Of a stretch of DNA of 64,000 nucleotides, positions 495 to 63,454 are shown piece after piece. Every line of letters begins with the position of its first letter. The stretch's first letter is position 1. Source of the stretch: a virus; the IMG/VR virus record IMGVR_UViG_3300036770_005778, positions 1-64,000 of that record, one strand, 5' to 3'. The position numbers and the translations under genes were made by a program. Under the pieces are notes generated by a model. That model ran no database searches, was not told the origin of the DNA, and saw nothing but the letters and a program-made list of their open reading frames with translations.

Positions 495-874
495 TACCAT
501 CTCCCCAGGATGACTCGACTGGCTCTCTCACCCTGTTGTATTAACAGTTTCTTCTTGAGTTCGCAGTAGGTCTTGGAACCTTCACCTCGCTGCGACCATT
601 CTTTGACTGTTGACTGCATGGGCTCAATGACACGGAGAACATCCTTCTGTAGTGTGCCCTTGGCTTCACTGTACATTTCAAACCAGCGCAGTTCTCGAGA
701 CAGCGACTCTATCTGCGGAATCTGTGGTTCTGAACAGTTGATGATCTCTACTCGTTGTCTGACATCTATGATGCGAGCTGATTGGTTATCATCCCAAAAA
801 GATGGTACCCAGTTCTGTATGGTAGAACAACCGGACAATAAAACCAACGCAGCGATCGAGATCCATTTAATCAT
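494..874 (-). CDS. predicted lipoprotein, 126 aa
   Basis: The N-terminus is a lipoprotein signal: MIKW, a hydrophobic stretch (ISIAALV) and a lipobox LLSGC at residues 12-16. The mature protein should therefore be acylated and sit in the outer or inner membrane. The rest is charged and helical with three further Cys. The start at 874 is favoured over an upstream alternative because it is at the lipobox-proximal Met and a TAAATA late-promoter core at 880-885 lies exactly 5 nt upstream. The role is unknown. An outer-membrane spanin-like role is possible, but it is longer than most Rz1-type proteins and nothing proves it. Confidence 0.7.
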   Translation of the reverse strand: MIKWISIAALVLLSGCSTIQNWVPSFWDDNQSARIIDVRQRVEIINCSEPQIPQIESLSRELRWFEMYSEAKGTLQKDVLRVIEPMQSTVKEWSQRGEGSKTYCELKKKLLIQQGERASRVILGRW

Positions 875-879
875 AATCG

Positions 880-885
880 TATTTA
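880..885 (-). promoter_or_regulatory. T4-type late promoter core TAAATA, 5 nt from ATG
   Basis: TAAATA is followed by 5 nt and the ATG at 874. With T4 geometry, transcription would start about at the ATG. Confidence 0.6.
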
Positions 886-889
886 CCAA

Positions 890-1456
890 TCAACGGAAAT
901 TGAACGGTATGCTGATCTTAACGCCTGTGCAGGTACTGACAGAATGCGTGAGCCAAGCAGGGAACAGCACCAATTTACCCGTTTGGGCGGGCATACGCAC
1001 ATACGACTGTTGGGGGTCCACGCTGCTGGGCCATGCTCGATTCATCATCAAGGGGTTGGGATTGCGGAACCATAGATCGCCGTTGCCAGGCTCTGCTTGA
1101 TAATAATAGATACCGCTGATCTTGCAGCCCGGGTGTTCATGATCGCCCATATAACCCCCTGATTCATAGATGTTGACCCAACTTTCGCAGAGATCCAGCG
1201 GTCCTGAGGTCTGCAGAGATTGGCAGTAGTCCGATACTGATTCCAGTATGACCTGCAGCAGAGCCTGCATCTGATGTTCTAATATATCATTGCTGCCTGT
1301 GTGTCTGTATGTGGTCTGTACGCTGTGTCTGGCACTGTCTCTGTGCAGAGCCAAACGATCCCAGACTGCAGAGACCTCTTCTCTGATCCACTGCTGTTCT
1401 TGGCTGTCTATGATCCGAGCCCAGATGGGCACGGCGAATATCTGTTCTGTGTTCAT
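890..1456 (-). CDS. 2OG-Fe(II) oxygenase family protein (TIGR02466-like), 188 aa
   Basis: The protein looks like the TIGR02466 group of putative 2-oxoglutarate/Fe(II) oxygenases common in T4-like marine phages. It opens with an FAVPIWARII segment. A double-stranded beta-helix region carries GDHEHPG followed by SGIYYYQ, then a late LTHSV histidine, which fit the iron ligands. The start at 1456 is chosen from the ATGA overlap with the upstream oxygenase gene. A 23-residue extension read upstream is Arg/His-rich and lacks its own signal. The substrate is unknown. Such phage enzymes sit among structural genes and may hydroxylate virion or host proteins. Confidence 0.75.
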   Translation of the reverse strand: MNTEQIFAVPIWARIIDSQEQQWIREEVSAVWDRLALHRDSARHSVQTTYRHTGSNDILEHQMQALLQVILESVSDYCQSLQTSGPLDLCESWVNIYESGGYMGDHEHPGCKISGIYYYQAEPGNGDLWFRNPNPLMMNRAWPSSVDPQQSYVRMPAQTGKLVLFPAWLTHSVSTCTGVKISIPFNFR

Positions 1457-2052
1457 ATGAAATGTAGATAAGTGCTGAGTATGTATTTGTCTGTGACCCG
1501 GGGTTCGTGACCTATGTGCGGCCACTGCAGGCCTGGAGGGAACATCAACAATCTGCCCTGGCGGGCTTCTACAGTGATGTTTTCTAGAGGAAACTCTGTG
1601 CCCGCATCTGAATCATTGAGATAGAACAGAAAAGCCAAGAATCTAGTGCTCATTTCTCTGCAACCGGCATCTGTGTGTATGGGGAACTGATCACCCGTGC
1701 CCGCTTTGTAGCCTTTGATGCGGAACCCTTCCATGGTGAAATCTTCAGGAAAACTGTGCAGATGATCCCAATGTTCTCTGTAATCTCCTACTACAGAATA
1801 AACACAGTCTACCAGATGTTGGCATTCTTCAGTGAAATCCTGGCGGCGCAACACACCTCGCAGCAACTCCTGGGTGGTAAACTGCCTGTAGGTGCGGCTG
1901 TAGAGGCTGAGTTCCCAGAGCCGTGGATAGTCCTGCCTGCGCAGTTGTTGGTCCTGGCACTCAGTGAATCGATCTATGAGGTGATCACAGAACTCCGGGG
2001 TCAGCACTCCGTCCACGACCCGTATCCAATTTTCGTCCATGCTGATCTGCAT
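1453..2052 (-). CDS. 2OG-Fe(II) oxygenase, prolyl-hydroxylase-like, 199 aa
   Basis: The HxD iron-binding pair is visible as PIHTDAG, followed about 40 residues later by a second histidine (WPHIGHEP) and a basic residue. This is the order seen in prolyl-4-hydroxylase-type oxygenases. FLAFLFYLND before the distal His fits the core strand. The start at 2052 is preferred to a TTG at 2076 because TAAATA lies 5 nt upstream of this ATG. It overlaps the next oxygenase gene by ATGA, so two different oxygenases are made together. The substrate is not evident. Confidence 0.8.
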   Translation of the reverse strand: MQISMDENWIRVVDGVLTPEFCDHLIDRFTECQDQQLRRQDYPRLWELSLYSRTYRQFTTQELLRGVLRRQDFTEECQHLVDCVYSVVGDYREHWDHLHSFPEDFTMEGFRIKGYKAGTGDQFPIHTDAGCREMSTRFLAFLFYLNDSDAGTEFPLENITVEARQGRLLMFPPGLQWPHIGHEPRVTDKYILSTYLHFI

Positions 2053-2057: not shown

Positions 2058-2063
2058 TATTTA
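2058..2063 (-). promoter_or_regulatory. late promoter core TAAATA, 5 nt from ATG
   Basis: TAAATA is separated from the ATG at 2052 by TCAAC. No Shine-Dalgarno fits between them. Confidence 0.6.
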
Positions 2064-2855: not shown

Positions 2856-2861
2856 TATTTA
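2856..2861 (-). promoter_or_regulatory. late promoter core TAAATA, 6 nt from ATG
   Basis: GATAAATA is followed by TCCAAT and the ATG at 2849. Confidence 0.6.
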
Positions 2862-3307: not shown

Positions 3308-3313
3308 TATTTA
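3308..3313 (-). promoter_or_regulatory. late promoter core TAAATA, 4 nt from second ATG
   Basis: GTAAATA precedes tandem ATG codons. It lies at the divergent boundary between the late minus-strand genes and the early plus-strand genes. Confidence 0.55.
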
Positions 3314-4462: not shown

Positions 4463-4539
<77 letters not shown>

Positions 4540-4571
4540 AACATCGACAGCAGCATGAGCAGCAGCACATT

Positions 4572-4647
4572 CCGCCCTTAGCTCAGGGGATAGAGCAACA
4601 GCCTTCTAAGCTGTGGGTCAGACGTTCGATTCGTCTAGGGCGGGCCA
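4572..4647 (+). tRNA. tRNA-Arg (TCT)
   Basis: Acceptor CCGCCCT pairs with AGGGCGG, the anticodon stem is ACAGC/GCTGT with loop CTTCTAA (anticodon TCT), the T-loop is TTCGATT, and CCA is encoded. It reads AGA, a codon common in the late genes but scarce in the early ones. Confidence 0.9.
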
Positions 4648-4668
4648 GAGTACAGCAGCAACAGCACT

Positions 4669-4753
4669 GCGACCGTGGTGAAATAGGTAGACACAAGAGA
4701 CTTAAAATCTCTCGACTTCGGTCATGCCGGTTCGATTCCGGCCGGTCGCACCA
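4669..4753 (+). tRNA. tRNA-Leu (TAA)
   Basis: An 85-nt class II tRNA: acceptor GCGACCG/CGGTCGC, anticodon stem AGAGA/TCTCT with loop CTTAAAA (anticodon TAA), a long variable arm (CGACTTCGGTCAT), TTCGATT T-loop and encoded CCA. Confidence 0.9.
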
Positions 4754-16766: not shown

Positions 16767-16772
16767 TAAATA
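16767..16772 (+). promoter_or_regulatory. late promoter core TAAATA, 4 nt from ATG
   Basis: AGTAAATA-CAAG-ATG, a late-type signal within the early region. A GGAG lies farther upstream. Confidence 0.55.
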
Positions 16773-21946: not shown

Positions 21947-21952
21947 TATTTA
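21947..21952 (-). promoter_or_regulatory. late promoter core TAAATA, 6 nt from ATG
   Basis: GTAAATA-ACAGTG-ATG. Divergent to the start at 21965. Confidence 0.55.
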
Positions 21953-22163: not shown

Positions 22164-22169
22164 TAAATA
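22164..22169 (+). promoter_or_regulatory. late promoter core TAAATA with SD leader
   Basis: GATAAATA is followed by a 23-nt leader with AAGGAG. Here the late core is well separated from the ATG at 22193. Confidence 0.6.
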
Positions 22170-23456: not shown

Positions 23457-23462
23457 TAAATA
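23457..23462 (+). promoter_or_regulatory. late promoter core TAAATA
   Basis: GGCTAAATA with a 22-nt gap containing GAGGAG before the ATG at 23485. Confidence 0.6.
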
Positions 23463-27400: not shown

Positions 27401-27646
27401 TTATTTAGCCCACATTAGATGATAGGCTGTGAGTGTTTTCTGATCGTAAAATTCTGCTACTAATTTAACATCTGCGCCAGATTTATCCATGACCAATTGG
27501 CAGTGTGTTTTTGGTTGATCTAACAGCCAACTCAGTTGATCTCGTCCTATAGTTTTCTGTACGTGAGGCCAATCTATATCTAAAAAATTAGCAGATTCGT
27601 CGGTAGTATACTGCCATTCAACTAATACTATTCGATCACTCTTCAT
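27401..27646 (-). CDS. small hypothetical protein, 81 aa
   Basis: Alpha/beta protein (DRIVLVEWQYTTDESANFLD ... VKLVAEFYDQKTLTAYHLMW) with no recognised domain. It overlaps the helicase gene by 11 nt and ends in a late promoter core. Presumably a replication accessory or unknown. Confidence 0.6.
   Translation of the reverse strand: MKSDRIVLVEWQYTTDESANFLDIDWPHVQKTIGRDQLSWLLDQPKTHCQLVMDKSGADVKLVAEFYDQKTLTAYHLMWAK
27402..27407 (-). promoter_or_regulatory. late promoter core TAAATA, 4 nt from ATG
   Basis: CTAAATA-ATGG-ATG. The TAA of the core is also the stop of the preceding gene. Confidence 0.6.
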
Positions 27647-52408: not shown

Positions 52409-52413
52409 ATCAA

Positions 52414-52419
52414 TATTTA
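52414..52419 (-). promoter_or_regulatory. late promoter core TAAATA, 5 nt from ATG
   Basis: ATAAATA-TTGAT-ATG at 52408. Divergent with the plus-strand promoter 52438-52443. Confidence 0.65.
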
Positions 52420-52437
52420 TGTACGCATTTAATTGAC

Positions 52438-52443
52438 TAAATA
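52438..52443 (+). promoter_or_regulatory. late promoter core TAAATA, 6 nt from ATG
   Basis: CTAAATA-ATTTTC-ATG at 52450. Divergent pair with 52414-52419. Confidence 0.65.
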
Positions 52444-52449
52444 ATTTTC

Positions 52450-53184
52450 ATGAGCACAAATAGTTTAACGATAGTATCTACATTTACTAAAGATCTTTGG
52501 GAAGAATACGGTAACAGATCAATTCCTACGTGGTTTCAATATTTTGATTCGACAGTTAAGTTTCATCTTCATACAGAATTTAAACCTATCATCGATCAAC
52601 GAATAACTTATTTTTTAGATACCAAAGAAAAATTAGATTTCTTAAAAAGAAACACTCGAATTAATCGACAAGGCACTAAAGATATGCACCCAGTAGGAAG
52701 AAAATGGGATACTTATTGTCATAAGGTATACGCCCAATACGAATCTTTCAAAAAATCCGATACTCGTTATCTTTTATTTTTAGATGCAGATGTTGCTGCA
52801 TTAAAATCCTTTAACGGGAACATTGCTGCCGATTTATTAGATAATCATTTTTGCGGGTTTATTGGCAGAGATTCGTTATTAACTGAAACTGGATTTATTT
52901 TATACGACTTACACTATCCGGGATCATCTCAATTCTTTGAAAGTTTTATAGACTTATATAATAAAGATCAATTATTTAATTTAACGTCGTGGTGCGATTG
53001 TGGAGCATTTGATCACATTAGAACTAATTCTCCCTTATTATTTAAAAATCTTTCTGGACAATACAGTCACTTTATTGATCCGATCGCGGTTGGAGAAATA
53101 GGAGAATATTTCGATCATTGGATTAGTAAAAAAAGTAAAAGAAAGGGATTCAGTAAACACAGAAAATTTAGAAACAAAGTATGA
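52450..53184 (+). CDS. GT-A glycosyltransferase-like protein, 244 aa
   Basis: SLTIVSTFTKDLWEEYGNRS, then YLLFLDADVAALKSF (DxD) and ETGFILYDLHYPGSSQFF follow the layout of the 42873 and 43681 proteins. The C-terminus is basic (SKKSKRKGFSKHRKFRNK). Glycosyltransferase of unknown sugar. ATGA link to the next gene. Confidence 0.7.
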   Translation: MSTNSLTIVSTFTKDLWEEYGNRSIPTWFQYFDSTVKFHLHTEFKPIIDQRITYFLDTKEKLDFLKRNTRINRQGTKDMHPVGRKWDTYCHKVYAQYESFKKSDTRYLLFLDADVAALKSFNGNIAADLLDNHFCGFIGRDSLLTETGFILYDLHYPGSSQFFESFIDLYNKDQLFNLTSWCDCGAFDHIRTNSPLLFKNLSGQYSHFIDPIAVGEIGEYFDHWISKKSKRKGFSKHRKFRNKV

Positions 53185-53906
53185 TAAAGAAAATTTTTTT
53201 AAAATATAATAAAGACCCAAGAGAGAATCCGTCGTCGTTACACTGTTTAAATTTCTGGTTAAGTGTTTTTGCAGACAGAGATATATGCATAATCTGTGAT
53301 ATATTTGATTCAAATTTAGGATTTCCAAAACAATTTAAAAATTATTCATCGTATAAATTTATAAATTCTAATTATTCTTTATCCGAACCAATCGATGATC
53401 TGTTAGAATCAAAAAGATGGAAAAATGTTGCTGCATCAAATTTATCGTGCTATGAAAAAAGTGAGTTTGATCCTTTTTGGTTAATAGATGCTGATGATAC
53501 GTTGTTTATAACATTTGATCTATCTTTAATAAAAGAAAAAATAAAATCGGCTGAAGATTATTTTTTAGAAAATGGTTTAGATGGATTTTCTTTAGATTTT
53601 TATAGAACGTTTAAAAGAGATCACTGGAGTTTCGGTGTTTCGTTGTTGCAAAATAAGCCTGATCTCATTTCTATTCTGTGTTCGACAGATTTAGATTTTT
53701 TTCAAACATTAAAACTGCCATACAATCTTGATGCATTATTTGATTGCAACAGAAGACAAGGAAAATTAAAATTAGAAAGTTTTATTTTTGATAATATGTT
53801 TTTTCAACATCAGTTAGACCAAAAATTTTTGCCATATGGGATTTATAGGTGGGAAAATCAAAAGCTATGGAATATGGAACTAAATCCCGAGGTTAAGATT
53901 TTTTGA
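53181..53906 (+). CDS. DxD glycosyltransferase-like protein, 241 aa
   Basis: The centre FDPFWLIDADDTLFITFDLS has a DAD motif after hydrophobic residues, typical of GT-A enzymes, and an SLDFYRTFKRDHWSFGVSLL region. Less similar to the DxD paralogues. Very AT-rich and Lys/Asn-rich. It converges with the epimerase gene, overlapping by 27 nt. Confidence 0.55.
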   Translation: MIKKIFLKYNKDPRENPSSLHCLNFWLSVFADRDICIICDIFDSNLGFPKQFKNYSSYKFINSNYSLSEPIDDLLESKRWKNVAASNLSCYEKSEFDPFWLIDADDTLFITFDLSLIKEKIKSAEDYFLENGLDGFSLDFYRTFKRDHWSFGVSLLQNKPDLISILCSTDLDFFQTLKLPYNLDALFDCNRRQGKLKLESFIFDNMFFQHQLDQKFLPYGIYRWENQKLWNMELNPEVKIF

Positions 53907-54854
53907 ATAAAACTCACTAGTTCTAAGCCAGTTATAATAAATTTCAAATCCTTCATCGATATCTACTTTAGGATCGAAACCAAAATCTCTGCGGGCGGCC
54001 GTAATATCTAATGCACCTCGGCTAGGAAAATCTGCATCTTTTTCTCGAACTTCGATACTGCCTTTGCCTACTAATTTAATAGCCAGTTCGGCAGCAGCAA
54101 GTAAAGTCTTACTGTGACTTTTTGTTATATTATAGGTTTTGTTTTTGGTATTTTCGCTTAATAGTGCTTCTACGATTCCATTAGCAGCATCGTCGACATA
54201 GGTAAAATCTAGAGTTTCATTTACACCGTTAACTTTTAACACTCCGCTTCTCATAGCAGTTAAAAGAAATTTACTAATAACTCTATCTTCAACGTCGAGC
54301 GGACCATATACAGCACTGGGGCGAAATATCGTATAGTTAATTCCGCGACGTTGATAATCTTTAATAAGCCACTCACCTGCTAATTTAAGAATACCGTATT
54401 GACCTTGTGGATGGCAAACAGCATCTTCGGTAACATAATCATTGAAATCGCCATATACCATACTACTGCTAGTATATAAAAATCTATTACAGTTATATTT
54501 TACACAGGCTTCTAACAGATTAAGCAAACCTTCGCTCATTACCTTTGCACCGAGAGCAGGATTAGCATTGACTACTTTTTGTCTAGGAAAACTGGCTAGA
54601 TGTATAACAGCATCTGGTCGATACTGCCTGAATAGCCATTCGGCATTTTCTCGGTCACTTATATCTATTCTATGTATTTTTTCTGTTTGAATAAATTTAA
54701 CACGCTCTGAGATAAGATAATCTATTTCCTGTTGAGGAATGATATTGTAATTTGTTTTTGTGTCTGTGATGATTACTTCATGACCGTGTTGTTCTAATTT
54801 TTTAACAACATTATGTCCAATTAATCCCAGGCCACCAGTTACTAAAATATTCAT
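53880..54854 (-). CDS. NAD-dependent epimerase/dehydratase, 324 aa
   Basis: Extended SDR: TGGLGLIG (residues 6-13, GxxGxxG), YTSSSMVYG, YGILKLAGEW (YxxxK), and FRPSAVYGPLD. It most resembles UDP-glucose or UDP-hexuronate 4-epimerases. Couples the glycan cluster to the recombination operon: its ATG overlaps the stop of the UvsY-like gene by ATGA. Confidence 0.85.
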   Translation of the reverse strand: MNILVTGGLGLIGHNVVKKLEQHGHEVIITDTKTNYNIIPQQEIDYLISERVKFIQTEKIHRIDISDRENAEWLFRQYRPDAVIHLASFPRQKVVNANPALGAKVMSEGLLNLLEACVKYNCNRFLYTSSSMVYGDFNDYVTEDAVCHPQGQYGILKLAGEWLIKDYQRRGINYTIFRPSAVYGPLDVEDRVISKFLLTAMRSGVLKVNGVNETLDFTYVDDAANGIVEALLSENTKNKTYNITKSHSKTLLAAAELAIKLVGKGSIEVREKDADFPSRGALDITAARRDFGFDPKVDIDEGFEIYYNWLRTSEFYSKNLNLGI

Positions 54855-55306
54855 AGTGTTGCGTCTTCTAATCCTGCGACTCTTAATTTAACGATGTTAC
54901 TTAGGTGCCATTGTTTCTGATCAAGTGCTTTGATAATACCTAACCATTTATTACGAAGCAAGGCGAAGTCATTGATGATTTTTTCAAAGTCTACAACGTC
55001 TGCTTCACCTTCTACGAACTTTTCACAGTCTCTAGAAGATAAAGCACGTTGATAGTTTTCGAGATACTTACGAAAATGCTGACTACGCAGTCTACGAAGT
55101 TCGATATTGAGGTATTCAAGAATGCCCTCAATTTCTTGGAGTTGATTGAATCGGTTTTCTACGATGCCTGGCATAGCAGCCGATGCTCGTTCGATGTTTC
55201 CCGCTATGCGGGCATCTTTTTTTGCTTCTAGCAGTTCGCTTTCATAGTATGCTACAGCATCTGGAATTTCAGAAATGTCTTTCGAAACTCGCTCATACCA
55301 ATTCAT
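54851..55306 (-). CDS. UvsY-like recombination mediator, 151 aa
   Basis: The C-terminal half aligns loosely with T4 UvsY (RRLRSQHFRKYLENYQRALS then LLRNKWLGIIKALDQKQWHL and NIVKLRV), and the gene sits directly downstream of uvsX. UvsY loads UvsX on gp32-coated DNA. The N-terminal 70 residues are coiled. The identity is low, so the assignment leans on context. Confidence 0.5.
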   Translation of the reverse strand: MNWYERVSKDISEIPDAVAYYESELLEAKKDARIAGNIERASAAMPGIVENRFNQLQEIEGILEYLNIELRRLRSQHFRKYLENYQRALSSRDCEKFVEGEADVVDFEKIINDFALLRNKWLGIIKALDQKQWHLSNIVKLRVAGLEDATL

Positions 55307-55543
55307 TTATTCCTCATCTTCGTTATAATCGTCGTATTCTTCTTCGATTTCCTCATCGTCGATGGCGTAGTCGATGGCTTCATCGAGATGAGTGTCAATA
55401 CCTAAAAGACTCTGGAGTGTAGATTCTTTGATTCCATAGTCTAATAATGTGTTAACGAAACCGGAGGCTACATCTGCTCTGGCTTTTTCTGGGATATGTT
55501 CTACTACCAATGTCCAAATGTCTGCAATTAAATCTTCTTTCAT
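55307..55543 (-). CDS. small acidic hypothetical protein, 78 aa
   Basis: KEDLIADIWTLVVEHIPEKA is a helical start and the C-terminus is a run of Asp/Glu/Tyr (DDEEIEEEYDDYNEDEE). A companion of UvsX in many T4-like phages, of unknown role. ATGA overlap with the uvsX stop and adjacency to the next gene. Confidence 0.6.
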   Translation of the reverse strand: MKEDLIADIWTLVVEHIPEKARADVASGFVNTLLDYGIKESTLQSLLGIDTHLDEAIDYAIDDEEIEEEYDDYNEDEE

Positions 55544-56619
55544 TCCACGCTCTCCAAATTGGTTGTGACATCTTTAATTATCCCGGATTCGATTTTTTCG
55601 CCATGTTTCGAAAACTCATTCATAACGACGTCGAGACAACCATTTTCGTTGCGTTCCCACTCTTTGCGATAAAACTTAAGGATTTCACCATCGCCGGTGG
55701 TGAAAGATAATCTGTTACCATCCTTTACCAACATGCCTTTGGCTTCTGCGAGATCTACTAATCCGCTGTAGGGATTCATACCTGTCTCATAGGGAATCTT
55801 GACCTGCACTGATTCAAAAGGTTTGGCATAACGTGTTTTCATGATCTTACAGGCAGCACGGATGCCTTTGACTTCTGAAATCTTGTTACCATCCTCATCT
55901 TCTTTCAACTTCAACTTCTTCATTGCAACCACGATAGAACTTGCGTAAATGAAGCCTTGTCCACCTGAGATCTTATCGTCAGGATCGAACATGTCCTGTG
56001 ATGCATAAGTGTGATTCGTAGCCACTAATCCAATATTAAGGCTACCAAACATATTAACACAGTTGCGCACCAGAGCCGTAAGTGCTTTTGGCTTACGGCC
56101 CATATCACCTTTAAGGTCTCCTGCTTCAAACTGATTGACATCTGTAGGAGTCAACAACATACCAAGGCTATCGAGAACAAATAGAACTTTAGGTCTTCCG
56201 TCTTCTGGCATGGTTTTGTATTCTGCTACAAATTCTGTGATGGTCTTGGCCACATCATCGATCATGGCCATGTTGAGTTTTAGGAGTTTATCTTCTGAAG
56301 TATCCACTCCTAATGCCTTGAGCCAATCCTCGTCTAATGCATTTTCTGTATCAACTAAGATCGGATAGATGCCCTGCGCCTGTGCGGCTTTGATGAGATT
56401 ACCGGAGCAGATATATGATTTGCCTGCACCACTTTCTCCTGCGAATACAGTGACTTTACCTAGCGGAACTCCTCTATGGAAATCTCCGCTGATCAAATAG
56501 TTTAAGGCATAATTGCCTGTGCTGACCCAATCTGTGGGATCATTAAAACCAATACTCAATCCATCGATAGATTTAGTGATCGATTTTCTAAATTTAGAAA
56601 TATCAAATGCTTTTGCCAT
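55540..56619 (-). CDS. uvsX: UvsX RecA-like recombinase, 359 aa
   Basis: Walker A GESGAGKS at residues 61-68, Walker B VLFVLDSLGML (about 144-154) and the L2-like region (DDKISGGQGFIYASS) match UvsX. An N-terminal helix with Lys-rich residues is present. It pairs homologous DNA for recombination-dependent replication and repair. AGGA upstream of ATG; a gp32 terminator lies just before it. Confidence 0.95.
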   Translation of the reverse strand: MAKAFDISKFRKSITKSIDGLSIGFNDPTDWVSTGNYALNYLISGDFHRGVPLGKVTVFAGESGAGKSYICSGNLIKAAQAQGIYPILVDTENALDEDWLKALGVDTSEDKLLKLNMAMIDDVAKTITEFVAEYKTMPEDGRPKVLFVLDSLGMLLTPTDVNQFEAGDLKGDMGRKPKALTALVRNCVNMFGSLNIGLVATNHTYASQDMFDPDDKISGGQGFIYASSIVVAMKKLKLKEDEDGNKISEVKGIRAACKIMKTRYAKPFESVQVKIPYETGMNPYSGLVDLAEAKGMLVKDGNRLSFTTGDGEILKFYRKEWERNENGCLDVVMNEFSKHGEKIESGIIKDVTTNLESVE

Positions 56620-56637
56620 TATTATTTTCCTGTGATG

Positions 56638-56664
56638 AAAAGAGTGTGGGATTACCCCACACTC
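56638..56664 (-). terminator. intrinsic terminator after gp32
   Basis: GAGTGTGGG / CCCACACTC stem, 5-nt loop, then TTTT on the minus strand. uvsX must come from readthrough or an unseen promoter. Confidence 0.8.
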
Positions 56665-56677
56665 GTTACTTTAGCCG

Positions 56678-57664
56678 TTACTGGCCCTGGCGAGCGCGGA
56701 TCTTGGCAAGGATGTCTTGCGCACGGCTCGCACTTTCGCCGGTGGCCGCTGATGATTCTGCTTTAGGGGCAGGAGCACTTCGAACGGCGGCTGGTTCGTC
56801 ATCACTGTCCTCATCTACAGGAGCAGATGCACGAGATGCTGCTGGCTTGTTAGGATCACCGGTAGCCTGGCCCATGCCTGCGGGTTTGAAATACTGTCCC
56901 CAACGATCCATATCATAGGCTTCGCCGTCAACACTTGCTTCGAACATTTCTTTCATTACTTTAAGTTCGACATCGGTGGGCTTTTTGGGCAAGAAACTAG
57001 ACAGATCAAACAGGCCGTATTGATCGATGGCTGCTTTCTCTTGATCAGTCAATGATCTCTCACGACGGCTCCACTTAGAAGTAGAGTAGTCAGCGAATCC
57101 GCCTTTCGATGTTTTAGCGATGCGGAAATCCACTCCACGGAGGAAATCGGTTGGCAGTTCTTCAAGTTCTGGATCCATCAGTGCAGAGCGGATGATCTGA
57201 TAGATCTGAGGTCCGATGATGAATCTACGGATGGGATTATCCGGAGTAGTATCTTCTTTGAGAGGATCTTCGACTACGAAACCTTGGAAGATGTAGGAAC
57301 GCTTCTTCCAATACTTACGGCCCATCTCTTCAAGATTTTTATCTTTGAACCAGCCACGAACTTCTGAAAGGATCGGACATGTCGTACCATCGTTGTACAT
57401 TTCCACGCAGGGAACTTGAACTTGCACTGCACGGCTATCGGTTTCACCTTTGACACCTGCGAACGGCAGTTTGATCATCGCTCGTTCCACCCAGAAGAAT
57501 GTGTTATTTTGATTGCCATCAGGAAGAAAACGGACTACCGCTTCTTTGCCTTCTTGCATGTTCCAGTGGGGGTAAATTGCGTTGTCTCCACCGCCTGTGG
57601 AGTTGCCGGATGTTTTGCTTTGTGCTTCTTGAAGTTTTGCACGGATTTCTGCTAGAGTTGCCAT
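56678..57664 (-). CDS. 32: single-stranded DNA-binding protein, T4 gp32 homologue, 328 aa
   Basis: The N-terminus (MATLAEIRAKLQEAQ) and a central core with AVVRFLPDGNQNNTFFWVER, CVEMYNDGTTCPIL and WKKRSYIFQGFVVEDP match gp32 of T4-like phages. An acidic tail with DEDSDDEPAAV then a short terminal helix fit the protein-interaction domain. Cys at the zinc site are partly kept. Coats ssDNA and recruits helicase, primase and UvsY. AGGAGG precedes the ATG. Confidence 0.9.
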   Translation of the reverse strand: MATLAEIRAKLQEAQSKTSGNSTGGGDNAIYPHWNMQEGKEAVVRFLPDGNQNNTFFWVERAMIKLPFAGVKGETDSRAVQVQVPCVEMYNDGTTCPILSEVRGWFKDKNLEEMGRKYWKKRSYIFQGFVVEDPLKEDTTPDNPIRRFIIGPQIYQIIRSALMDPELEELPTDFLRGVDFRIAKTSKGGFADYSTSKWSRRERSLTDQEKAAIDQYGLFDLSSFLPKKPTDVELKVMKEMFEASVDGEAYDMDRWGQYFKPAGMGQATGDPNKPAASRASAPVDEDSDDEPAAVRSAPAPKAESSAATGESASRAQDILAKIRARQGQ

Positions 57665-57720
57665 TTTAAATTGCCTCCTTGTAAATTTGCCTTAAAATGT
57701 ATGCCTTACGCATAAAACAT

Positions 57721-57749
57721 ATTATGCGTGTTTTATTTAGTAAGGTCAA
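57721..57749 (-). promoter_or_regulatory. sigma70-type promoter for gp32 with embedded late core
   Basis: TTGACC, 17-nt spacer, CATAAT. The spacer holds TAAATA (57734-57739), so early and late polymerases may share the site. GCATAA...TTATGC in the leader can fold. Confidence 0.65.
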
Positions 57750-57771
57750 GATCTTTTTAAGAATTTTTAGC

Positions 57772-57800
57772 CAAAAGAAAAGGCTCCGGAGAGCCTTTCT
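57772..57800 (-). terminator. intrinsic terminator before gp32 unit
   Basis: AAAGGCTC / GAGCCTTT stem, loop 4 nt, minus-strand T run. It ends the 57810 gene. Confidence 0.85.
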
Positions 57801-57809
57801 TGTTACAGA

Positions 57810-60023
57810 TTAATAACCTATGCCTTGTGCTATGCCCGACAGTCTACGAATATCTTCCAATTCTGGTGAAACGCTTTGGATATCCTCACCTTTTGGCTTA
57901 CTGTGATGCTGTACTCGAGCATATGTATCGAGTAGATCTCCAACAAAATCTTCATCGTGCCTTAAAATGTAGCTGGCTCTCTTCTTGCCCAGATCGTTGA
58001 CCATAAATTCATACGCTGCATCAACCACTTCGTCTCCTCGGCCTTTTGCGCTGAGATTCGGATTCATCTTAAATACCCTGCTTGCCAGAGCATAGACATA
58101 ATCTTCATCGTAGAAAGAATCTCCTACATCGTCTGGATCTTCTTCCGGACTCATGTCTCTAATACGATCCCCTTCGTTTTGAACACCGGCTAATTCTTTC
58201 ATCCTAGATAATTCTTGCATTTGTTCTGCACCCTGTTCTTGATGCGGAGCCATACGCTCTACGAACTTACGGGCTACTTGTTCTGCCTGCTCGCCAAACT
58301 TCTTGCCTACCATTGTGCAAACGCTTTCTGGTCCTTTAGGGAATGTGCCTGTGTTGCGATCATAGAATGAAGTGATGTACTCGGCTAATTCTTTAACATC
58401 CATGGCCTGACGCATTCCCTGCTTGGCCAAATGTTTAGCGGTCGATGGTCCGATACCATATTTTCCTGCTTTGGCAGAAGGCGGCTTATCATCTGGATCA
58501 GCATCAAATGGCGTATCATCCTTGTCATCGTCTTTGCTTCGTTGGGTAGGATCGTCGGCGGACATCTGTGGTTCTTCTTCCGGTGCAGTTTGATCACCTC
58601 CTTCGCCTGCTGCCGGCTCATCGACCATATCGCCGAAGTCCAATTGATCTACTACTTCTGGTGCGTTCTGTTCTAGCCAATTTTTTATTAAAGGTCTTAC
58701 ACAACCGTCTGGGTCTGTCTTTGCCTGGTCTTTGATTTCTTTATACAACTGAGGATCTTCTATGATGCCCTTGAGACTCTCGATGGCATTAGAACCGTCC
58801 ACTCCAGCAGGGAAATGTTCCCCTACTAGATCTTGTAACTCTTTAACTGCCTGGCTTTGTTCTTCCGGATCTTGGCTGACTATAGCAGATTCTTCTCCTA
58901 GAGCCATGACCCAGTTTTCGAACCTGTCAAAATAATTATTTTCATCGTGTTCGATTACATCTACTTCATCGTTAACGATATTTTCTTGTGTCATCGCGAC
59001 TATGTCGTCATAGCCTAAGGTATTTTCTTCCTGCATCAACCGGTATATAACAGGAAATACAGATTTGATGTCTTCTTTGAAATTTTTAACTGTGAATTTT
59101 TCAATATATTCTTCTGCTACTTCTTGTGGAACTTCTATTTGTTCTCTAGATTGAAAATTTTCTTTATACGCTTCGTAGTGGCTCTGCTTAGATATTTTTT
59201 GTATAGTTTCTCTTAGATTGTTTAATGCCTGCGTACTACGTTCTACGATACCGTTGGTTTCTGAATTCATTAGATCGTTACGAACGACATAATTTCCAAA
59301 ACTTTTAAGTTGTGCGATTTCTTCGCTCATTTGTATGATGCTTTTACCTAGTTCGTCATACGGTAATCCGCCGTTGGCCACGTGTCTCTGCATAGCGCGG
59401 GCGCCTGCTAGATGGATGAATGGATATTTAAATCTTTCACCGTCTTGGTTTTCTACGAACAGCGCAGATATATGTCTCGTTCTGGCTCCAGGCTGTGTAT
59501 CATCCATCACTGCTTGGCTATGTTTGATAATAAGACGAGTATCCATTAATTTTTGATAACTCATGGTCTTAGTACCATAAAGTGTGCTTTCGTTCATAAC
59601 TTGTTCTCCGACCGGCTGTACGATAGTATTTGATTGTTCTTTGGGTTTGTTATGCTGGCTTAAAAATTCATAATCTCTTTTATCTAAATTGTCTTTAGCG
59701 ATATCTCGAGTATCAAAAGCCATCAGTCTACGTTTGGCAAAAATGCGTAATTCTTTTAGGAATTCGTACCAATGATCTTTTTGCTTGGTGTCCATGCCCT
59801 CCGTGATTCCGGTGCTGAAGTAAACTTTCATCGAATTTTCTTCTGCTAGGCTGATACTAACATGACCTATAGGAGTTTCGCCTTCCATATAATCAAAATC
59901 GAAGAATCTTGCTTCCTCGGGATTGATCGTTAGTTGACCCGATTCGTCACCTAATTTTAATCCACGAAAACGGCTACGCACCTTGTAAAAAAGATCTGTG
60001 GCAATATTATTTGTAGCATTCAT
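57810..60023 (-). CDS. large hypothetical late protein, 737 aa
   Basis: Soluble multi-domain protein. N-terminal beta region (GQLTINPEEARFFDFDYMEG ... PIGHVSISLAEENSMKVYFS), middle helices with an IEEP-like coiled part, a long acidic Pro/Asp/Glu linker (about 510-560), then a C-terminal helical domain (KYGIGPSTAKHLAKQGMRQA). KYGIGPSTAKHLAKQG could be a HhH-type DNA-binding motif. It is 5 nt after TAAATA and follows the large terminase gene. Function unknown; a packaged or packaging-linked protein fits the context. Confidence 0.65.
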   Translation of the reverse strand: MNATNNIATDLFYKVRSRFRGLKLGDESGQLTINPEEARFFDFDYMEGETPIGHVSISLAEENSMKVYFSTGITEGMDTKQKDHWYEFLKELRIFAKRRLMAFDTRDIAKDNLDKRDYEFLSQHNKPKEQSNTIVQPVGEQVMNESTLYGTKTMSYQKLMDTRLIIKHSQAVMDDTQPGARTRHISALFVENQDGERFKYPFIHLAGARAMQRHVANGGLPYDELGKSIIQMSEEIAQLKSFGNYVVRNDLMNSETNGIVERSTQALNNLRETIQKISKQSHYEAYKENFQSREQIEVPQEVAEEYIEKFTVKNFKEDIKSVFPVIYRLMQEENTLGYDDIVAMTQENIVNDEVDVIEHDENNYFDRFENWVMALGEESAIVSQDPEEQSQAVKELQDLVGEHFPAGVDGSNAIESLKGIIEDPQLYKEIKDQAKTDPDGCVRPLIKNWLEQNAPEVVDQLDFGDMVDEPAAGEGGDQTAPEEEPQMSADDPTQRSKDDDKDDTPFDADPDDKPPSAKAGKYGIGPSTAKHLAKQGMRQAMDVKELAEYITSFYDRNTGTFPKGPESVCTMVGKKFGEQAEQVARKFVERMAPHQEQGAEQMQELSRMKELAGVQNEGDRIRDMSPEEDPDDVGDSFYDEDYVYALASRVFKMNPNLSAKGRGDEVVDAAYEFMVNDLGKKRASYILRHDEDFVGDLLDTYARVQHHSKPKGEDIQSVSPELEDIRRLSGIAQGIGY

Positions 60024-60028
60024 AAGAG

Positions 60029-60034
60029 TATTTA
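60029..60034 (-). promoter_or_regulatory. late promoter core TAAATA, 5 nt from ATG
   Basis: GATAAATA-CTCTT-ATG at 60023. The core begins 1 nt after the terminase stop codon. Confidence 0.65.
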
Positions 60035-61621
60035 TCAAAAACCTGTACTGACGAAAATAGGCATAGGCATTTGATCTTCGGTGATCTTATCAGTCATTTT
60101 TTCGTAGATCTTTGGATCCCAATCGGCTAATATAGCAGCCATTCGCAATATCAATAATGTGCTAGATACGAGATCGTCGTTCTCTCCTGTTTTGGCGCCA
60201 AATCCTACGCCATGCGCAACGTAATTTTTTAATTCACTGACCAAAGGTTTGCTGTGTATGCGCATCTTACCAGTTTCTACCATGTGTTTAAATTGGCTGC
60301 AGGCTGCGATTTTCGATTTATGGGTGGTATTAAATCCTTTGCGAAATTTTCGAAAGTGCCCTTTGCGTATTGGTTCGCTAAGGAACAGGCCAGCAAAATT
60401 TTCTTCGCCTATGTTATTAATACAGATTAAAGCACTTTCGCCCACAGTATTATTTTCAACTGAATAATATATCTGCGGATTTCCGCCTCGCTCTTTGCCT
60501 CTAGTAGAGATATAATTACAAATTTCTTTGAGATGTTTGGCTTGATTTTGCACGGGGGTAAGATTGTGATGCCATTCCGCCACCTGTTCCATAGCAGGCA
60601 ATTCAAAAACCTGTATCGCAGAATAATCGCCGCCTGTACCTAAACTAGGATCTAGTGCCACTAGATAGGTGCATCTAGGATCTATATCTTTATACCAACG
60701 AGTCTGCCCCATGATCATATATGGATCATCACCTTTGAGTTCTGCTAATTTAACAGAATTGATCAATGTCTCGTCAAAGATTAAAAATTCGCAATCGAAT
60801 TCTCTACGGAATCGTTCTTCACCGATCTTGGCACGCTCAACGCGAGCCCATTCTTCGTCTCGATCTGGATGTTCGTTCCAATGGGCAAAATATGAAAAGA
60901 AGCCGTTGGTTCCTAGTTTTTGTTCATTACCGTAGTCATCAAACCGATTGTTGGCTTCGGTCCAAATTAATGCGAACTGATCTTCGTCTGAATTAGGTGT
61001 CGATGTGATGATACATTTACCACCTGTTGACAGTGTTGGAGAAAGTGCTGTCCAGAACTCTTTGGCTTTTTCCGGTGGCTGCACGAACGCAAACTCGTCA
61101 CAATAAATTAGAGATAGGGATTTACCACGACCTGTGTTTTCTGTGGTTGTAGTTGCTTGTATACGGCTTCCGTTATCGTATTCGATGGTATTCCTATTAT
61201 ATGAATACACCCCTGCACGGACGAAATCGGGCAAGTTCTCGTAGCCATAGCGATAGCGATTCATGATATCCTGCGCACCTTCATATTTGTGAGCAGCGAT
61301 TAGAACCTGTGCTTCTGGCACGAACATAGTATACCATAACAGATAACCGGTGGCGCAGGTAGTCTTACCCATCTGGCGAGGTAACATAGCGATACACTGT
61401 TTGTTTTCATGATAGGCCTGGATCAAACGTTCTTGATAATCATAGGGATCGAATTTTATCGCTCCGCGAGTAGGGTGTTGTATCTTTAGAAAATTCTTAC
61501 AGAAATATAAAGGTCCAGTCACAGGATCCATGCAGGCTTCGAGATGCTTGACTTCTTCCAGAGTGTATTTCTGGACAGCATGTGCCTTTTTGATCAGTAC
61601 TCCGTCTAATGATTTTGCCAT
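60035..61621 (-). CDS. 17: terminase large subunit, gp17, 528 aa
   Basis: ATPase domain: Walker A PRQMGKTT (81-88) and Walker B LIYCDEFAF with Asp-175/Glu-176, with TSTPN as coupling motif. Nuclease domain: VALDPSLGTGGDYS with Asp-324 and later acidic residues (DDLVSSTLL). It cuts and pumps the concatemer into the head. TAAATA lies 5 nt before its ATG. A terminator (61635-61663) precedes the gene. Confidence 0.95.
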   Translation of the reverse strand: MAKSLDGVLIKKAHAVQKYTLEEVKHLEACMDPVTGPLYFCKNFLKIQHPTRGAIKFDPYDYQERLIQAYHENKQCIAMLPRQMGKTTCATGYLLWYTMFVPEAQVLIAAHKYEGAQDIMNRYRYGYENLPDFVRAGVYSYNRNTIEYDNGSRIQATTTTENTGRGKSLSLIYCDEFAFVQPPEKAKEFWTALSPTLSTGGKCIITSTPNSDEDQFALIWTEANNRFDDYGNEQKLGTNGFFSYFAHWNEHPDRDEEWARVERAKIGEERFRREFDCEFLIFDETLINSVKLAELKGDDPYMIMGQTRWYKDIDPRCTYLVALDPSLGTGGDYSAIQVFELPAMEQVAEWHHNLTPVQNQAKHLKEICNYISTRGKERGGNPQIYYSVENNTVGESALICINNIGEENFAGLFLSEPIRKGHFRKFRKGFNTTHKSKIAACSQFKHMVETGKMRIHSKPLVSELKNYVAHGVGFGAKTGENDDLVSSTLLILRMAAILADWDPKIYEKMTDKITEDQMPMPIFVSTGF

Positions 61622-61626
61622 ATAAT

Positions 61627-61632
61627 TATTTA
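61627..61632 (-). promoter_or_regulatory. late promoter core TAAATA, 5 nt from ATG
   Basis: AGTAAATA-ATTAT-ATG at 61621, just after the terminator of the EF-hand gene. Confidence 0.7.
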
Positions 61633-61634
61633 CT

Positions 61635-61663
61635 GAAAAAAATAGGCTCTGTAGAGCCTATTT
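61635..61663 (-). terminator. intrinsic terminator
   Basis: AAATAGGCTC / GAGCCTATTT stem, loop TACA, T-run on the minus strand. It ends the EF-hand gene. Confidence 0.9.
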
Positions 61664-61686
61664 GATTATCGCAAGTTGCGAATTTT

Positions 61687-62397
61687 TTAAGATTTCTTTG
61701 CTTCGTTTAATCTCTGTAACAGTTCAGCACGAATTTGTGCTCGAAGGTCACTGCCCTCCATCTTTTGCATAGGATTGTCACCGCCTGCTACTTTAGGAAA
61801 TGTTTTCTTAGGTCTGTTCAGATCGTTACCATCTGGAATAATAGCATCTATTCCTTTATACTCGGAGTCTGAATCGTCCATAGAGTTAGCAAATGCTTCT
61901 TCTTTATCTTTTTTCTTTTCTATATCATGATCATCCATGTCATGATCGCCGTCGTCGTCTTTGTCTAGACTTTTTAGCAGTGGTTTCTCGGAAGCATGAT
62001 CTTTTTCGTGAGGATCTAATTTTCCATCTTTGTTGTAATCGGAATCCATCTCTCCGCCGATCTTGCTGTCATTGTCAGCATCGAAGTCGGGAAGCATTTT
62101 TAATGGCGGCAAACTGGGTTTGATACTCATGATGCTAGGTTCTGGACTCAGTGCGGGCAACGGTGGTAAAGAAGGTTTATCCATGTCTGGATTAACTTTC
62201 GTGACCAATTTCATTAGATCTTCGATGTTCTCCATTCCTTGTGCATTTAAATTAATGCTCATGCTAGGAGGAGCCACTGGTGGATCGTTGGGAGGCGGCA
62301 TCGGAGATCCGCAGCCCATTTCGTCTGTTATTTGTTCTACTGTAGATGCAGGTTTATCTAACTGCTGCATCTTGGCTAATAATTCATGAAAATTCAT
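61687..62397 (-). CDS. EF-hand-like calcium-binding protein, 236 aa
   Basis: A canonical EF-hand loop is seen at residues 120-131 (DYNKDGKLDPHE). Two degenerate loops lie at about 106-117 (DADNDSKIGGEM) and 145-156 (DKDDDGDHDMDD). The rest is Pro-rich and acidic with a helical C-terminus (LRAQIRAELLQRLNEAK). Calcium-binding proteins are rare in T4 packaging modules. It may be an internal head or prohead-core protein. The start has GGGGAG and is coupled to the upstream gene. Confidence 0.65.
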   Translation of the reverse strand: MNFHELLAKMQQLDKPASTVEQITDEMGCGSPMPPPNDPPVAPPSMSINLNAQGMENIEDLMKLVTKVNPDMDKPSLPPLPALSPEPSIMSIKPSLPPLKMLPDFDADNDSKIGGEMDSDYNKDGKLDPHEKDHASEKPLLKSLDKDDDGDHDMDDHDIEKKKDKEEAFANSMDDSDSEYKGIDAIIPDGNDLNRPKKTFPKVAGGDNPMQKMEGSDLRAQIRAELLQRLNEAKKS

Positions 62398-62399
62398 AT

Positions 62400-62966
62400 T
62401 TAACTCCCCATTGGGCTTTTTGTACCTGCTTTATCGATCTTGGCCTTGGGCAGTTTGTATTCGGTCTGTCCCTGATCTTTTTTACGAGCCTTGGCTGATT
62501 TTTCTAGATCTTTTAAAAATGATTTATTAAAATCGTCGCCAAAATAATCCTTATGTTTAACTTTTCCGGTGTTCTTGTCTAAGTCAGTTTCACTGAGTAA
62601 TGCTTCATTTTTGGTATCACTATTTAACATAACCTGATCTTCTTCTGAAGGTTCGCTGCTGCCGCGAACACGGAAACAACCTTCGTCGATGCCCATATGT
62701 TTGATATCTTGAGAAATCTCTGGAGCAGTTATAGGATATTCACAGATCACTTCAAAAATATGCACTTCTTTGTTTTCCATATTTGGAAAATCTAATGGTA
62801 ATTTTTGTATAGGCGTGGTCGTGATTTTTTCAATAGTCATTACTTTACAGCGATCGAGTCTTGTTTTTAATCCCTCCTGAAATTTTTCAGGTAATTCGCC
62901 GGCAATCTTGACTTTGAAACTGTAAACTTTTTGGCTCTCAGTGAGATATTGTTTAAAACTTTTCAT
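62400..62966 (-). CDS. hypothetical protein with capsid-targeting-like N-terminus, 188 aa
   Basis: The MKSFKQYLTES start resembles the capsid-targeting peptides of T4 internal proteins (MKTYQEFI-type). A beta region (VHIFEVICEYPITAPEISQD) and a Lys-rich tail (SAKARKKDQGQTEYKLPKAK) follow. It is likely packaged, but the match is only by a short motif. Starts 5 nt after TAAATA. Confidence 0.55.
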   Translation of the reverse strand: MKSFKQYLTESQKVYSFKVKIAGELPEKFQEGLKTRLDRCKVMTIEKITTTPIQKLPLDFPNMENKEVHIFEVICEYPITAPEISQDIKHMGIDEGCFRVRGSSEPSEEDQVMLNSDTKNEALLSETDLDKNTGKVKHKDYFGDDFNKSFLKDLEKSAKARKKDQGQTEYKLPKAKIDKAGTKSPMGS

Positions 62967-62971
62967 ATGTG

Positions 62972-62977
62972 TATTTA
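62972..62977 (-). promoter_or_regulatory. late promoter core TAAATA, 5 nt from ATG
   Basis: AATAAATA-CACAT-ATG at 62966. The TAA is also the stop of the gp16-like gene. Confidence 0.65.
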
Positions 62978-63454
62978 TTCCTTGTTGCCTAGTTTTTTCA
63001 ACAACTCGTTTCGATCAGTAATGATGTATCCTTGACCATTAATCACATCATTTGAATCTCCGGTAGAATCTTTATCTATTTTATATTTCTTTAATTGTAG
63101 ATCTACTGCTTTTAACTTTTTCTCAATTTTTGCACTTTTAGCATCTATAGCATTCTTTAACATCGTGCCCGCAACTTCAAAAATCCTACCGCTGTAACGA
63201 ACTTCTACGTTCATACCTAAATCCATTAGATCGTCGTAGGCCTGCTCTGCTTTGCTGGCCAAATTGTCTAACTCTTTGTCGTCTAATTCATCTAATTCCT
63301 TTATCTGAGGCAGTCCTTTGGTAATTTCGCTGACTGCTCGATAACTTTCGTCGAGGCTTTTTACTTCTTGATTTTCCGCGAGAGATTTTGGCACGGTTTC
63401 TTTTTTTGTCGAGGATTCTTCGAGATTTAACAGTTCTTCTAATTTTTTAGTCAT
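62975..63454 (-). CDS. 16: terminase small subunit, gp16-like, 159 aa
   Basis: MTKKLEELLNLEESSTKKET is the typical N-terminus, followed by a long central coiled-coil (ELDELDDKELDNLASKAEQA ... LKNAIDAKSAKIEKKLKAVD) and a short C-terminal part. Length and coil match gp16, which binds DNA ends and regulates gp17. The start at 63454 is used because the upstream extension overlaps gp4. TAAATA is 8 nt away. Confidence 0.75.
   Translation of the reverse strand: MTKKLEELLNLEESSTKKETVPKSLAENQEVKSLDESYRAVSEITKGLPQIKELDELDDKELDNLASKAEQAYDDLMDLGMNVEVRYSGRIFEVAGTMLKNAIDAKSAKIEKKLKAVDLQLKKYKIDKDSTGDSNDVINGQGYIITDRNELLKKLGNKE

What the first reader, a model, noticed from the sequence alone, without database searches (positions are those of the whole stretch)
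869..62980. Twelve late genes have TAAATA 4-6 nt before the ATG: leaderless late mRNAs
At starts 874, 2052, 2849, 3303, 16777, 21940, 27397, 52408, 52450, 60023, 61621 and 62966 the TAAATA core lies 4-6 nt before ATG (exactly 5 in six of them). T4 late cores occupy about -13 to -6, so transcription would begin at or within one to two bases of the ATG. Most of these have no Shine-Dalgarno. Leaderless late genes as a rule would be new for a T4-type phage.
Basis: partly seen in the sequence, partly recalled or inferred. Interest (0 to 1): 0.78.

Follow-up and report, generated by a model that had tools for sequence, protein, structure and literature searches.

The report
Leaderless late genes in jumbo phages
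In a group of giant phages known mainly from metagenomes, a T4-like late promoter sits so close to the start codon of certain genes that the messenger RNA should begin at the start codon itself, with no ribosome-binding leader; this placement is kept across dozens of relatives but is not a pattern in T4 or the other named phages compared.

Summary
All 12 TAAATA-N(4-6)-ATG sites exist and exceed chance: 15 pairs in the window, shuffle mean 2.9, maximum 10 of 500. In 80 related IMG/VR loci, 341 of 961 cores have an ATG exactly 5 nt downstream, 333 with a real ORF, all preceded by a pyrimidine, as expected if A of AUG is +1. Before terminase the spacing is kept in 78 of 80 loci, mostly with a terminator directly upstream. 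Such genes lack Shine-Dalgarno motifs (2 of 78, against 55 of 89 with the core 15-35 nt upstream), and spacings of 8-14 nt are nearly empty. T4, PA5oct and 13 other phages show no such pooled excess. A gp55-like late sigma is in 7 of 10 related contigs, not in the window's own fragment. Best reading: leaderless mRNAs from T4-type late promoters. But it is a subset, not a rule: tail sheath, a baseplate wedge and others keep leader and Shine-Dalgarno. Three of the 12 sites are weak, and most of the 12 genes are not shown to be late. No RNA 5' ends were available.

The parts
61627..61632 (-). TAAATA late-promoter core, 5 nt before the ATG of the terminase large subunit (60035-61621)
   Evidence: TAAATA at 4-6 nt before the matched ATG in 78 of 80 related loci
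61640..61663 (-). terminator hairpin directly upstream of the terminase promoter
   Evidence: hairpin plus T-run in front of 70 of 81 terminase sites
60035..61621 (-). terminase large subunit gene, leaderless by this reading
   Evidence: PHROG phrog_36964, E 2.3e-114
60029..60034 (-). TAAATA core, 5 nt before ATG 60023
   Evidence: 80 of 82 hits with spacing 4-5
57810..60023 (-). virion structural protein gene, leaderless by this reading
   Evidence: phrog_13484, E 4.1e-16
62972..62977 (-). TAAATA core, 5 nt before ATG 62966; its TAA is also the stop codon of the upstream ORF
   Evidence: 65 of 69 hits at 5 nt, 2 more at 7
62400..62966 (-). virion structural protein gene, leaderless by this reading
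   Evidence: phrog_14802, E 9.6e-10
52414..52419 (-). TAAATA core of the divergent pair, 5 nt before ATG 52408 (NTP-transferase-like gene 50891-52408)
   Evidence: one orthologue, in L016, with spacing 5
52438..52443 (+). TAAATA core of the divergent pair, 6 nt before ATG 52450 (gene 52450-53184)
   Evidence: 41 bp between the two ATGs; 1 of 4 homologues has the core at 6
27402..27407 (-). TAAATA core, 4 nt before ATG 27397 (nucleotidyltransferase-domain gene 26684-27397)
   Evidence: 1 of 2 homologues (G002) has the core at 4
2058..2063 (-). TAAATA core, 5 nt before ATG 2052 (2OG-Fe(II) oxygenase-like gene 1453-2052)
   Evidence: the one homologue (G002) has the core at 4
880..885 (-). TAAATA core, 5 nt before ATG 874 (ORF 494-874)
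   Evidence: the one homologue (G002) has the core at 5
2856..2861 (-). TAAATA core, 6 nt before ATG 2849 (258-aa gene 2073-2849)
   Evidence: no homologue in the loci compared
16767..16772 (+). TAAATA core, 4 nt before ATG 16777, just after a terminator-like hairpin and T-run; weak site because GGAG precedes the core
   Evidence: the one homologue (G001) lacks the spacing
3308..3313 (-). TAAATA core, 4 nt before ATG 3303; weak site (61-aa ORF, no homologue)
21947..21952 (-). TAAATA core, 6 nt before ATG 21940; weak site (76-aa ORF, no homologue)
22164..22169 (+). leadered counterpart: the same core 23 nt before the next start, with AAGGAG between
23457..23462 (+). leadered counterpart: the same core 22 nt before the next start, with GAGGAG between

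Best explanation
The phage and its relatives use T4-type late promoters (consensus here mostly RA-TAAATA), read by host RNA polymerase with a phage gp55-like late sigma. At a defined subset of genes (terminase, some virion, connector and tail genes, and many unknown genes) the promoter lies so that +1 is the A of the AUG. The mRNA then has no leader and no Shine-Dalgarno, and ribosomes must start on a 5'-terminal AUG. Other late genes use the same promoter type about 16-33 nt upstream, usually with a Shine-Dalgarno. Shown from sequence: the motif, its fixed spacing, its conservation, the missing SD, the upstream terminators, and the sigma gene in relatives. Inferred: that the sites are promoters, the exact +1, late timing, and leaderless translation.
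For: Spacing: in 80 related loci (1.15 Mb, partly redundant) 341 of 961 cores have ATG at exactly 5 nt; every other distance from -1 to 40 has at most 44, except 76 at 31. Grouped by protein: 447 sites, 58 gene families, 24 in 2 or more records, 9 in 5 or more. Orthologues: terminase 78 of 80 loci, 45 distinct upstream sequences; gene 60023 80 of 82 hits; gene 62966 65 of 69 at 5 nt; gene 65385 54 of 63; gene 72709 24 of 38. Terminator, core and ATG abut at terminase. Spacings 4-6 / 8-14 / 16-33: G001 19/3/40, G002 31/3/38, T4 0/5/25, Atu_ph07 0/2/56, PA5oct 2/5/39. Seven related contigs: 178 matches at 4-6 nt, 35 at 10-12; 15 other phages: 172 and 196 (pooled Fisher P 3e-19). SD-like motif 2 of 78, against 55 of 89 leadered and 364 of 720 others. 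Base -1 is a pyrimidine in 40 of 40 sites at spacing 5 (305 of 720 others), 31 of 31 by gene family, 333 of 333 in the 80 loci. Both classes favour a purine then A before the core. Core density outside genes 3.0-3.5 per kb, inside 0.17-0.36 (G001, G002). Head-to-head pairs with ATGs 39-43 bp apart and a core at each end in own, G001 and G002. gp55-like sigma, E 1e-78 to 1e-84, in 7 of 10 related contigs. T4 anatomy: 8-bp box with first base at -13 (PMC2988020, passages), so it ends at -6 and a spacing of 5 puts A of ATG at +1.
Against: No RNA 5' ends exist for any member. The leadered class shows no pyrimidine-purine step at the offset where +1 should fall (39% pyrimidine, then 49% purine), so +1 is taken from T4 and not confirmed here. 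Spacing 4 is common (27 of 78 sites in own, G001 and G002); it needs the start to shift by one base, and only 15 of those 27 have a pyrimidine at -1. Where the core overlaps the upstream stop codon (62966), the gene could also be translated from a longer mRNA. The reversed pattern also occurs 77 times in the seven related contigs, so part of the 178 raw matches is chance. T4 has 10 raw ATGs at 5 nt, within its own range of 0-13 per distance, though none is a called start. The gp55-like gene was not found in the window's own contig, G006 or G007 (partial contigs), and the G010 hit holds an in-frame TGA. No related contig, and not PA5oct, matched the gp45 clamp model PF02916.
Confidence: 0.85

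Rival explanations
1. The cores are real late promoters, but the genes are mainly translated from longer upstream mRNAs (coupled or SD-led), and the short transcript is minor.
For: Some cores overlap or abut the upstream stop codon: 62966, where TAA of the core is the stop, and 60023, where the core directly follows TGA. Two of 12 window sites have an SD-like motif.
Against: Terminase, the 65385 family and 16777 have a terminator-like hairpin in front of the core (70 of 81, 51 of 55 and 1 of 1 sites). In the divergent pairs the neighbour upstream points the other way. SD motifs are missing in 76 of 78 sites.
Confidence: 0.1
2. TAAATA is a host sigma-70 type -10 box, not a phage late promoter; the phage follows a host that uses leaderless genes.
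For: Bacterial leaderless genes carry a TANNNT box about 10-12 bp upstream of the start (PMC3160421, abstract and passages), which TAAATA partly resembles.
Against: The same extended core precedes leadered virion genes. A gp55-like sigma is encoded in 7 of 10 related contigs. The bS21 of G002 is nearest to mostly gamma/betaproteobacterial bS21 (best 57-62%), a weak host hint; Proteobacteria are described as mainly SD-led.
Confidence: 0.08
3. TAAATA before ATG is a translation or RNA-processing signal, not a promoter.
For: The spacing is fixed relative to ATG, as for a ribosome-binding element.
Against: The same extended core is found 15-35 nt upstream of mostly SD-led genes, and directly after terminators. 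It matches the known T4 late box.
Confidence: 0.04
4. Chance matches in an AT-rich genome.
For: Three of the 12 window sites are weak (3303, 21940, 16777), and 3 further pairs in the window are not genes.
Against: Shuffles, permuted hexamers, other phages and orthologue conservation.
Confidence: 0.01

Closest known systems
Bacteriophage T4 late promoters (TATAAATA, gp55/gp33/gp45)
   Same: TAAATA core at the -10 position, no conserved upstream element in the 16 nt examined, gp55-like sigma encoded in relatives of the window phage
   Different: The two bases before the core are mostly purine-A here instead of TA. In T4 the box lies 13 nt or more before the next called start (most often 28), and 0 of 252 called genes have the core at 4-6.
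Pseudomonas jumbo phage PA5oct (Arenbergviridae)
   Same: Nearest named relative by helicase (54.6%); RA-TAAATA core (purine at the first place in 37 of 41) and a gp55-like sigma
   Different: 2 of 311 called genes have the core at 4-6 nt. Its orthologue of gene 62966 has the core 25 nt upstream with AAGGA between.
Bacterial leaderless (TA-led) genes, for example in Deinococcus-Thermus and Actinobacteria (PMC3160421, PMC12340547; abstracts and passages)
   Same: -10 box directly before the ATG, no SD, transcript expected to start at the AUG
   Different: There the box is a host sigma-70 type box. Here it matches a phage late-sigma box, and the same genomes also use it with leaders.
Thermus phage phiYS40 middle and late transcripts (Sevostyanova 2007; leaderless by recall, paper not held, reference seen)
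   Same: Phage late genes without leaders (recalled)
   Different: A Thermus phage, in a host group that uses leaderless genes widely; no T4-type gp55 system that I recall.
Lambda leaderless mRNA (cI)
   Same: Leaderless phage mRNA (mentioned in PMC3160421 and PMC9031893, passages)
   Different: A single gene; read by host sigma-70 (recalled).

Membership tests
T4-type late promoter | 8-bp TATA box with TAAATA core at -10 | tested here: met
   Core exact by selection. The two bases before it favour R and A (78 leaderless and 89 leadered sites; T4 and PA5oct compared), a variant of T4's TA.
T4-type late promoter | no conserved -35 element | tested here: inconclusive
   No base above 45% from 3 to 16 nt before the core; the -35 position itself lies further upstream and was not tabulated.
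T4-type late promoter | gp55-like sigma encoded | tested here: met
   phrog_12791 in G001-G005, G008 and G010; not in G000 (the window's own 75 kb), G006 or G007, all partial.
T4-type late promoter | sliding clamp gp45 and co-activator gp33 | tested here: inconclusive
   gp45 model PF02916 matched T4 only: 0 of 9 related contigs (own included) and not PA5oct; gp33 was not searched.
T4-type late promoter | transcription start 6 nt after the box | not testable with these tools
   Needs 5' end mapping; indirect support from 333 of 333 pyrimidines at -1, but no such step in the leadered class.
Leaderless gene | -10 box directly upstream of the start codon | tested here: met
   Fixed 5-nt spacing.
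Leaderless gene | no Shine-Dalgarno | tested here: met
   2 of 78, against 55 of 89 leadered.
Leaderless gene | AUG start codon | tested here: inconclusive
   ATG 63, GTG 0, TTG 0, CTG 2 at spacing 4-6 in G001 and G002; non-ATG starts are rare there anyway (398 of 419 and 408 of 428 called genes start with ATG).
Leaderless gene | 5' end of the mRNA at the AUG | not testable with these tools
   No RNA data.

The most novel reading that the evidence does not exclude
A phage late sigma factor drives two translation classes from one promoter type: a conserved set of packaging and assembly genes made as leaderless mRNAs, and a set of virion genes (tail sheath, baseplate) with leader and Shine-Dalgarno. 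This would be a built-in translational split within the late regulon, possibly tuned by phage-altered ribosomes (bS21 is encoded in G001, G002, G007 and G008, but also in PA5oct and Atu_ph07).
Probability: 0.35. Interest if true: 0.8.

Novelty: new variant of a known kind. Interest (0 to 1): 0.62.

Why it matters
If true, a phage group well represented in IMG/VR (290 stretches encoding a terminase relative) couples a T4-type late promoter to leaderless translation. I saw no report of this in my search listings. It gives a natural paired comparison: the same promoter with and without a leader in one genome, and an orthologue with a leader in PA5oct. It also gives a rule for start-codon annotation: my own caller, which favours SD, missed or moved several of these starts.

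Tried and rejected
Genome-wide TAAGTA variant: a subgroup of distant relatives has TAAGTA instead of TAAATA, 5 nt before terminase. It is not used genome-wide: 0-4 matches per related contig, T4 and PA5oct 5 each.

A translation-factor link: bS21 occurs in 4 of 8 related contigs but also in PA5oct and Atu_ph07; IF3 occurs only in Atu_ph07 among 11 records. No specific link to the leaderless class.

A-richness after the ATG: 0.379 against 0.370, no clear difference. Folding of the first 40 nt is weaker: -2.41 against -3.25 kcal/mol, P 0.007, n 60 and 831, a modest effect.

Exact TATAAATA as the motif: no match at 3-7 nt before ATG in the window's contig.

Sigma-70 consensus scan of 50000-63990: at chance level, 45 found, shuffle mean 42.2.

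Comparators that lean the same way in raw counts (4-6 against 10-12 nt): Atu_ph07 25 and 15, Phosso 6 and 2, Syn9 7 and 5, XaC1 9 and 8. In none of the four is the count clearly above the reversed-pattern control (47, 5, 10 and 34), and Atu_ph07 has 0 of 596 called genes with the core at 4-6.

Literature: ten searches combined leaderless, late promoter(s), T4, jumbo, TATAAATA, PA5oct, phiYS40 and Arenbergviridae terms. Several listings were capped (for example 15 of 416), and only the openly licensed library is held, so absence is weakly tested.

The orthologue script preferred, within 25 codons, an in-frame ATG that had the core; one search repeats the terminase count without that preference (78 of 80).


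Full report
What the window is. The window is bases 1-64000 of a 75,031-base IMG/VR virus record. Its DnaB-like helicase matches PA5oct at 54.6% identity, Phosso at 51.6% and Atu_ph07 at 50.0%. It carries a terminase large subunit, UvsX-like recombinase, SSB, primase and virion genes. It is a piece of a jumbo-phage genome near the Arenbergviridae, not a T4 relative in the narrow sense.

Observation. All 12 sites are there with the stated spacings. In the window 15 TAAATA-N4-6-ATG pairs occur against 2.94 expected from 500 dinucleotide shuffles (maximum 10); no other permutation of the hexamer exceeds 7. Upstream of called genes on the 75-kb contig, 10 of 91 have it against 0.39 in shuffles of the 40 nt before each start. 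Three of the 12 are weak: 3303 and 21940 are short ORFs without homologues in the loci compared, and 16777 has a GGAG in front of the core.

Relatives. The terminase query matched 290 stretches in IMG/VR; the best 80 were kept, at 84-93% identity. In these 80 loci (1.15 Mb, partly redundant) 341 of 961 cores have an ATG at exactly 5 nt, 333 of them opening an ORF of 60 codons or more; every other distance from -1 to 40 has at most 44, except 76 at 31 nt, where own and G002 have the tail sheath gene. Grouped by protein, the 447 sites of these loci plus own, G001 and G002 fall into 58 gene families, 24 in at least two records and 9 in at least five. The terminase ATG has the core at 4-6 nt in 78 of 80 loci, with 45 distinct upstream sequences (misses L026 and L078). 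Other orthologues, by a script that preferred an in-frame ATG with the core: gene 60023 80 of 82 hits, gene 62966 65 of 69 at 5 nt plus 2 at 7, gene 65385 (outside the window) 54 of 63, gene 72709 (outside) 24 of 38 (G001 and G002 contain two of the 80 loci, so those count twice). Genes near the left end of the window have few homologues to compare: 0 to 2 each for 874 to 27397. In 80 more distant relatives found with the PA5oct terminase, 90 ORFs lie at 5 nt and a smaller group of 42 at 7; the terminase itself has the core at 4-6 in 35 of 80.

Anatomy. At terminase a hairpin with a T-run, the core and the ATG abut. A terminator-like hairpin precedes 70 of 81 terminase sites and 51 of 55 sites of the 65385 family, whose G002 member is tail-tube-like (phrog_4542). 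In own, G001 and G002 there are head-to-head pairs with only 39-43 bp between the two ATGs and a core at each end. Neither arrangement leaves room for a leader from an upstream transcript, unless the terminator is read through.

Two classes. The distance from core to called start is two-peaked in own, G001 and G002 and single-peaked in the three comparators. Counts for 4-6, 8-14 and 16-33 nt: own 10, 1, 7; G001 19, 3, 40; G002 31, 3, 38; Atu_ph07 0, 2, 56; PA5oct 2, 5, 39; T4 0, 5, 25. The empty middle is what one expects if a transcript either starts on the AUG or must have room for a Shine-Dalgarno. SD-like motifs: 2 of 78 leaderless, 55 of 89 leadered, 364 of 720 others (P 6e-18 and 2e-19). 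Both classes favour a purine, then A, before TAAATA. At 5-nt spacing the base before ATG is T or C in 40 of 40 sites of own, G001 and G002 (305 of 720 elsewhere), 31 of 31 by gene family and 333 of 333 in the 80 loci. This fits a pyrimidine(-1)/A(+1) start on the AUG. Against it: the leadered class shows no such step at the same offset, and at spacing 4 only 15 of 27 have a pyrimidine.

Comparators. Across seven contigs (G000-G006) the pattern occurs 178 times at 4-6 nt and 35 times at 10-12; across 15 other phages (T4, PA5oct, Atu_ph07, Phosso, SCTP-2, XaC1, Vibrio 2.275.O, CBB, Aeh1, KVP40, Syn9, S-PM2, phiM7, phiM12, phiW-14) 172 and 196. The reversed pattern at 4-6 gives 77 in the seven contigs and 275 in the 15 phages. 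The PA5oct orthologue of gene 62966 has the core 25 nt upstream with AAGGA between, so the same gene is leadered there.

Mechanism. T4 late promoters are an 8-bp box beginning at -13 with no conserved -35 element (PMC2988020, passages); the box therefore ends at -6, and a 5-nt spacer puts A of ATG at +1. A gp55-like sigma is encoded in G001-G005, G008 and G010, 7 of 10 contigs searched; none was found in the window's own contig, G006 or G007, which are partial, and the G010 hit holds a TGA. The gp45 model found nothing in nine contigs or PA5oct. I conclude that these are late promoters whose transcripts begin on the AUG. This is inference until 5' ends are mapped.

Scope. It is a subset, not a rule: tail sheath, a baseplate wedge, a tail-spike-like gene and ribonucleotide reductase keep a leader. 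Of 37 leaderless sites in G002, 20 proteins were scanned: functions include head-tail adaptor, tail tube, a tail-fibre-like protein, metallophosphoesterase, 2OG-Fe(II) oxygenase and peptidase; the rest have no or unknown-function matches, apart from one weak aldolase match. Of the 12 window genes 10 were scanned, and three match packaging or virion families.

Known or new. Leaderless genes with a -10 box at the start codon are known in bacteria (PMC3160421, PMC12340547; abstracts and passages), and leaderless phage mRNAs are known (lambda cI; phiYS40 recalled). For jumbo phage AR9 the mapped leaders are 26-491 nt (PMC5312081, passages). I saw no leaderless class under T4-type late promoters in the listings of my ten searches, several of them capped. 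I file it as a new variant of a known kind.

Noticed in passing
52408-52450: Divergent gene pair with 41 bp between the ATGs and a TAAATA core at each end; similar head-to-head pairs occur in G001 (252941/252981) and G002 (281412/281456).
   Followed up: partly
L142, L145 and L147 (G001 contig): Relative G001 carries a cluster of 28 tRNA genes, a tmRNA candidate and a tRNA with a CTA anticodon that ARAGORN labels Pyl, possibly an amber suppressor.
   Followed up: no
4463-4753: Cluster of three tRNA genes: Met(cat), Arg(tct), Leu(taa).
   Followed up: no
L151:13352-13510 (G002): Phage-encoded bS21 in G001, G002, G007, G008, PA5oct and Atu_ph07; the nearest bacterial copies to the G002 protein are mostly gamma/betaproteobacterial, best 57-62%.
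   Followed up: partly
L224, L237, L248 and others: A subgroup of distant relatives has TAAGTA instead of TAAATA, 5 nt before the terminase ATG, not genome-wide.
   Followed up: partly
L004:8847 (PA5oct terminase): The PA5oct terminase ATG also sits directly behind a terminator-like hairpin, but without TAAATA.
   Followed up: no
L002:2096-5524: Tail sheath gene (named through its G002 counterpart) with a late core 31 nt upstream, an SD, and a short out-of-frame ATG in the leader.
   Followed up: no
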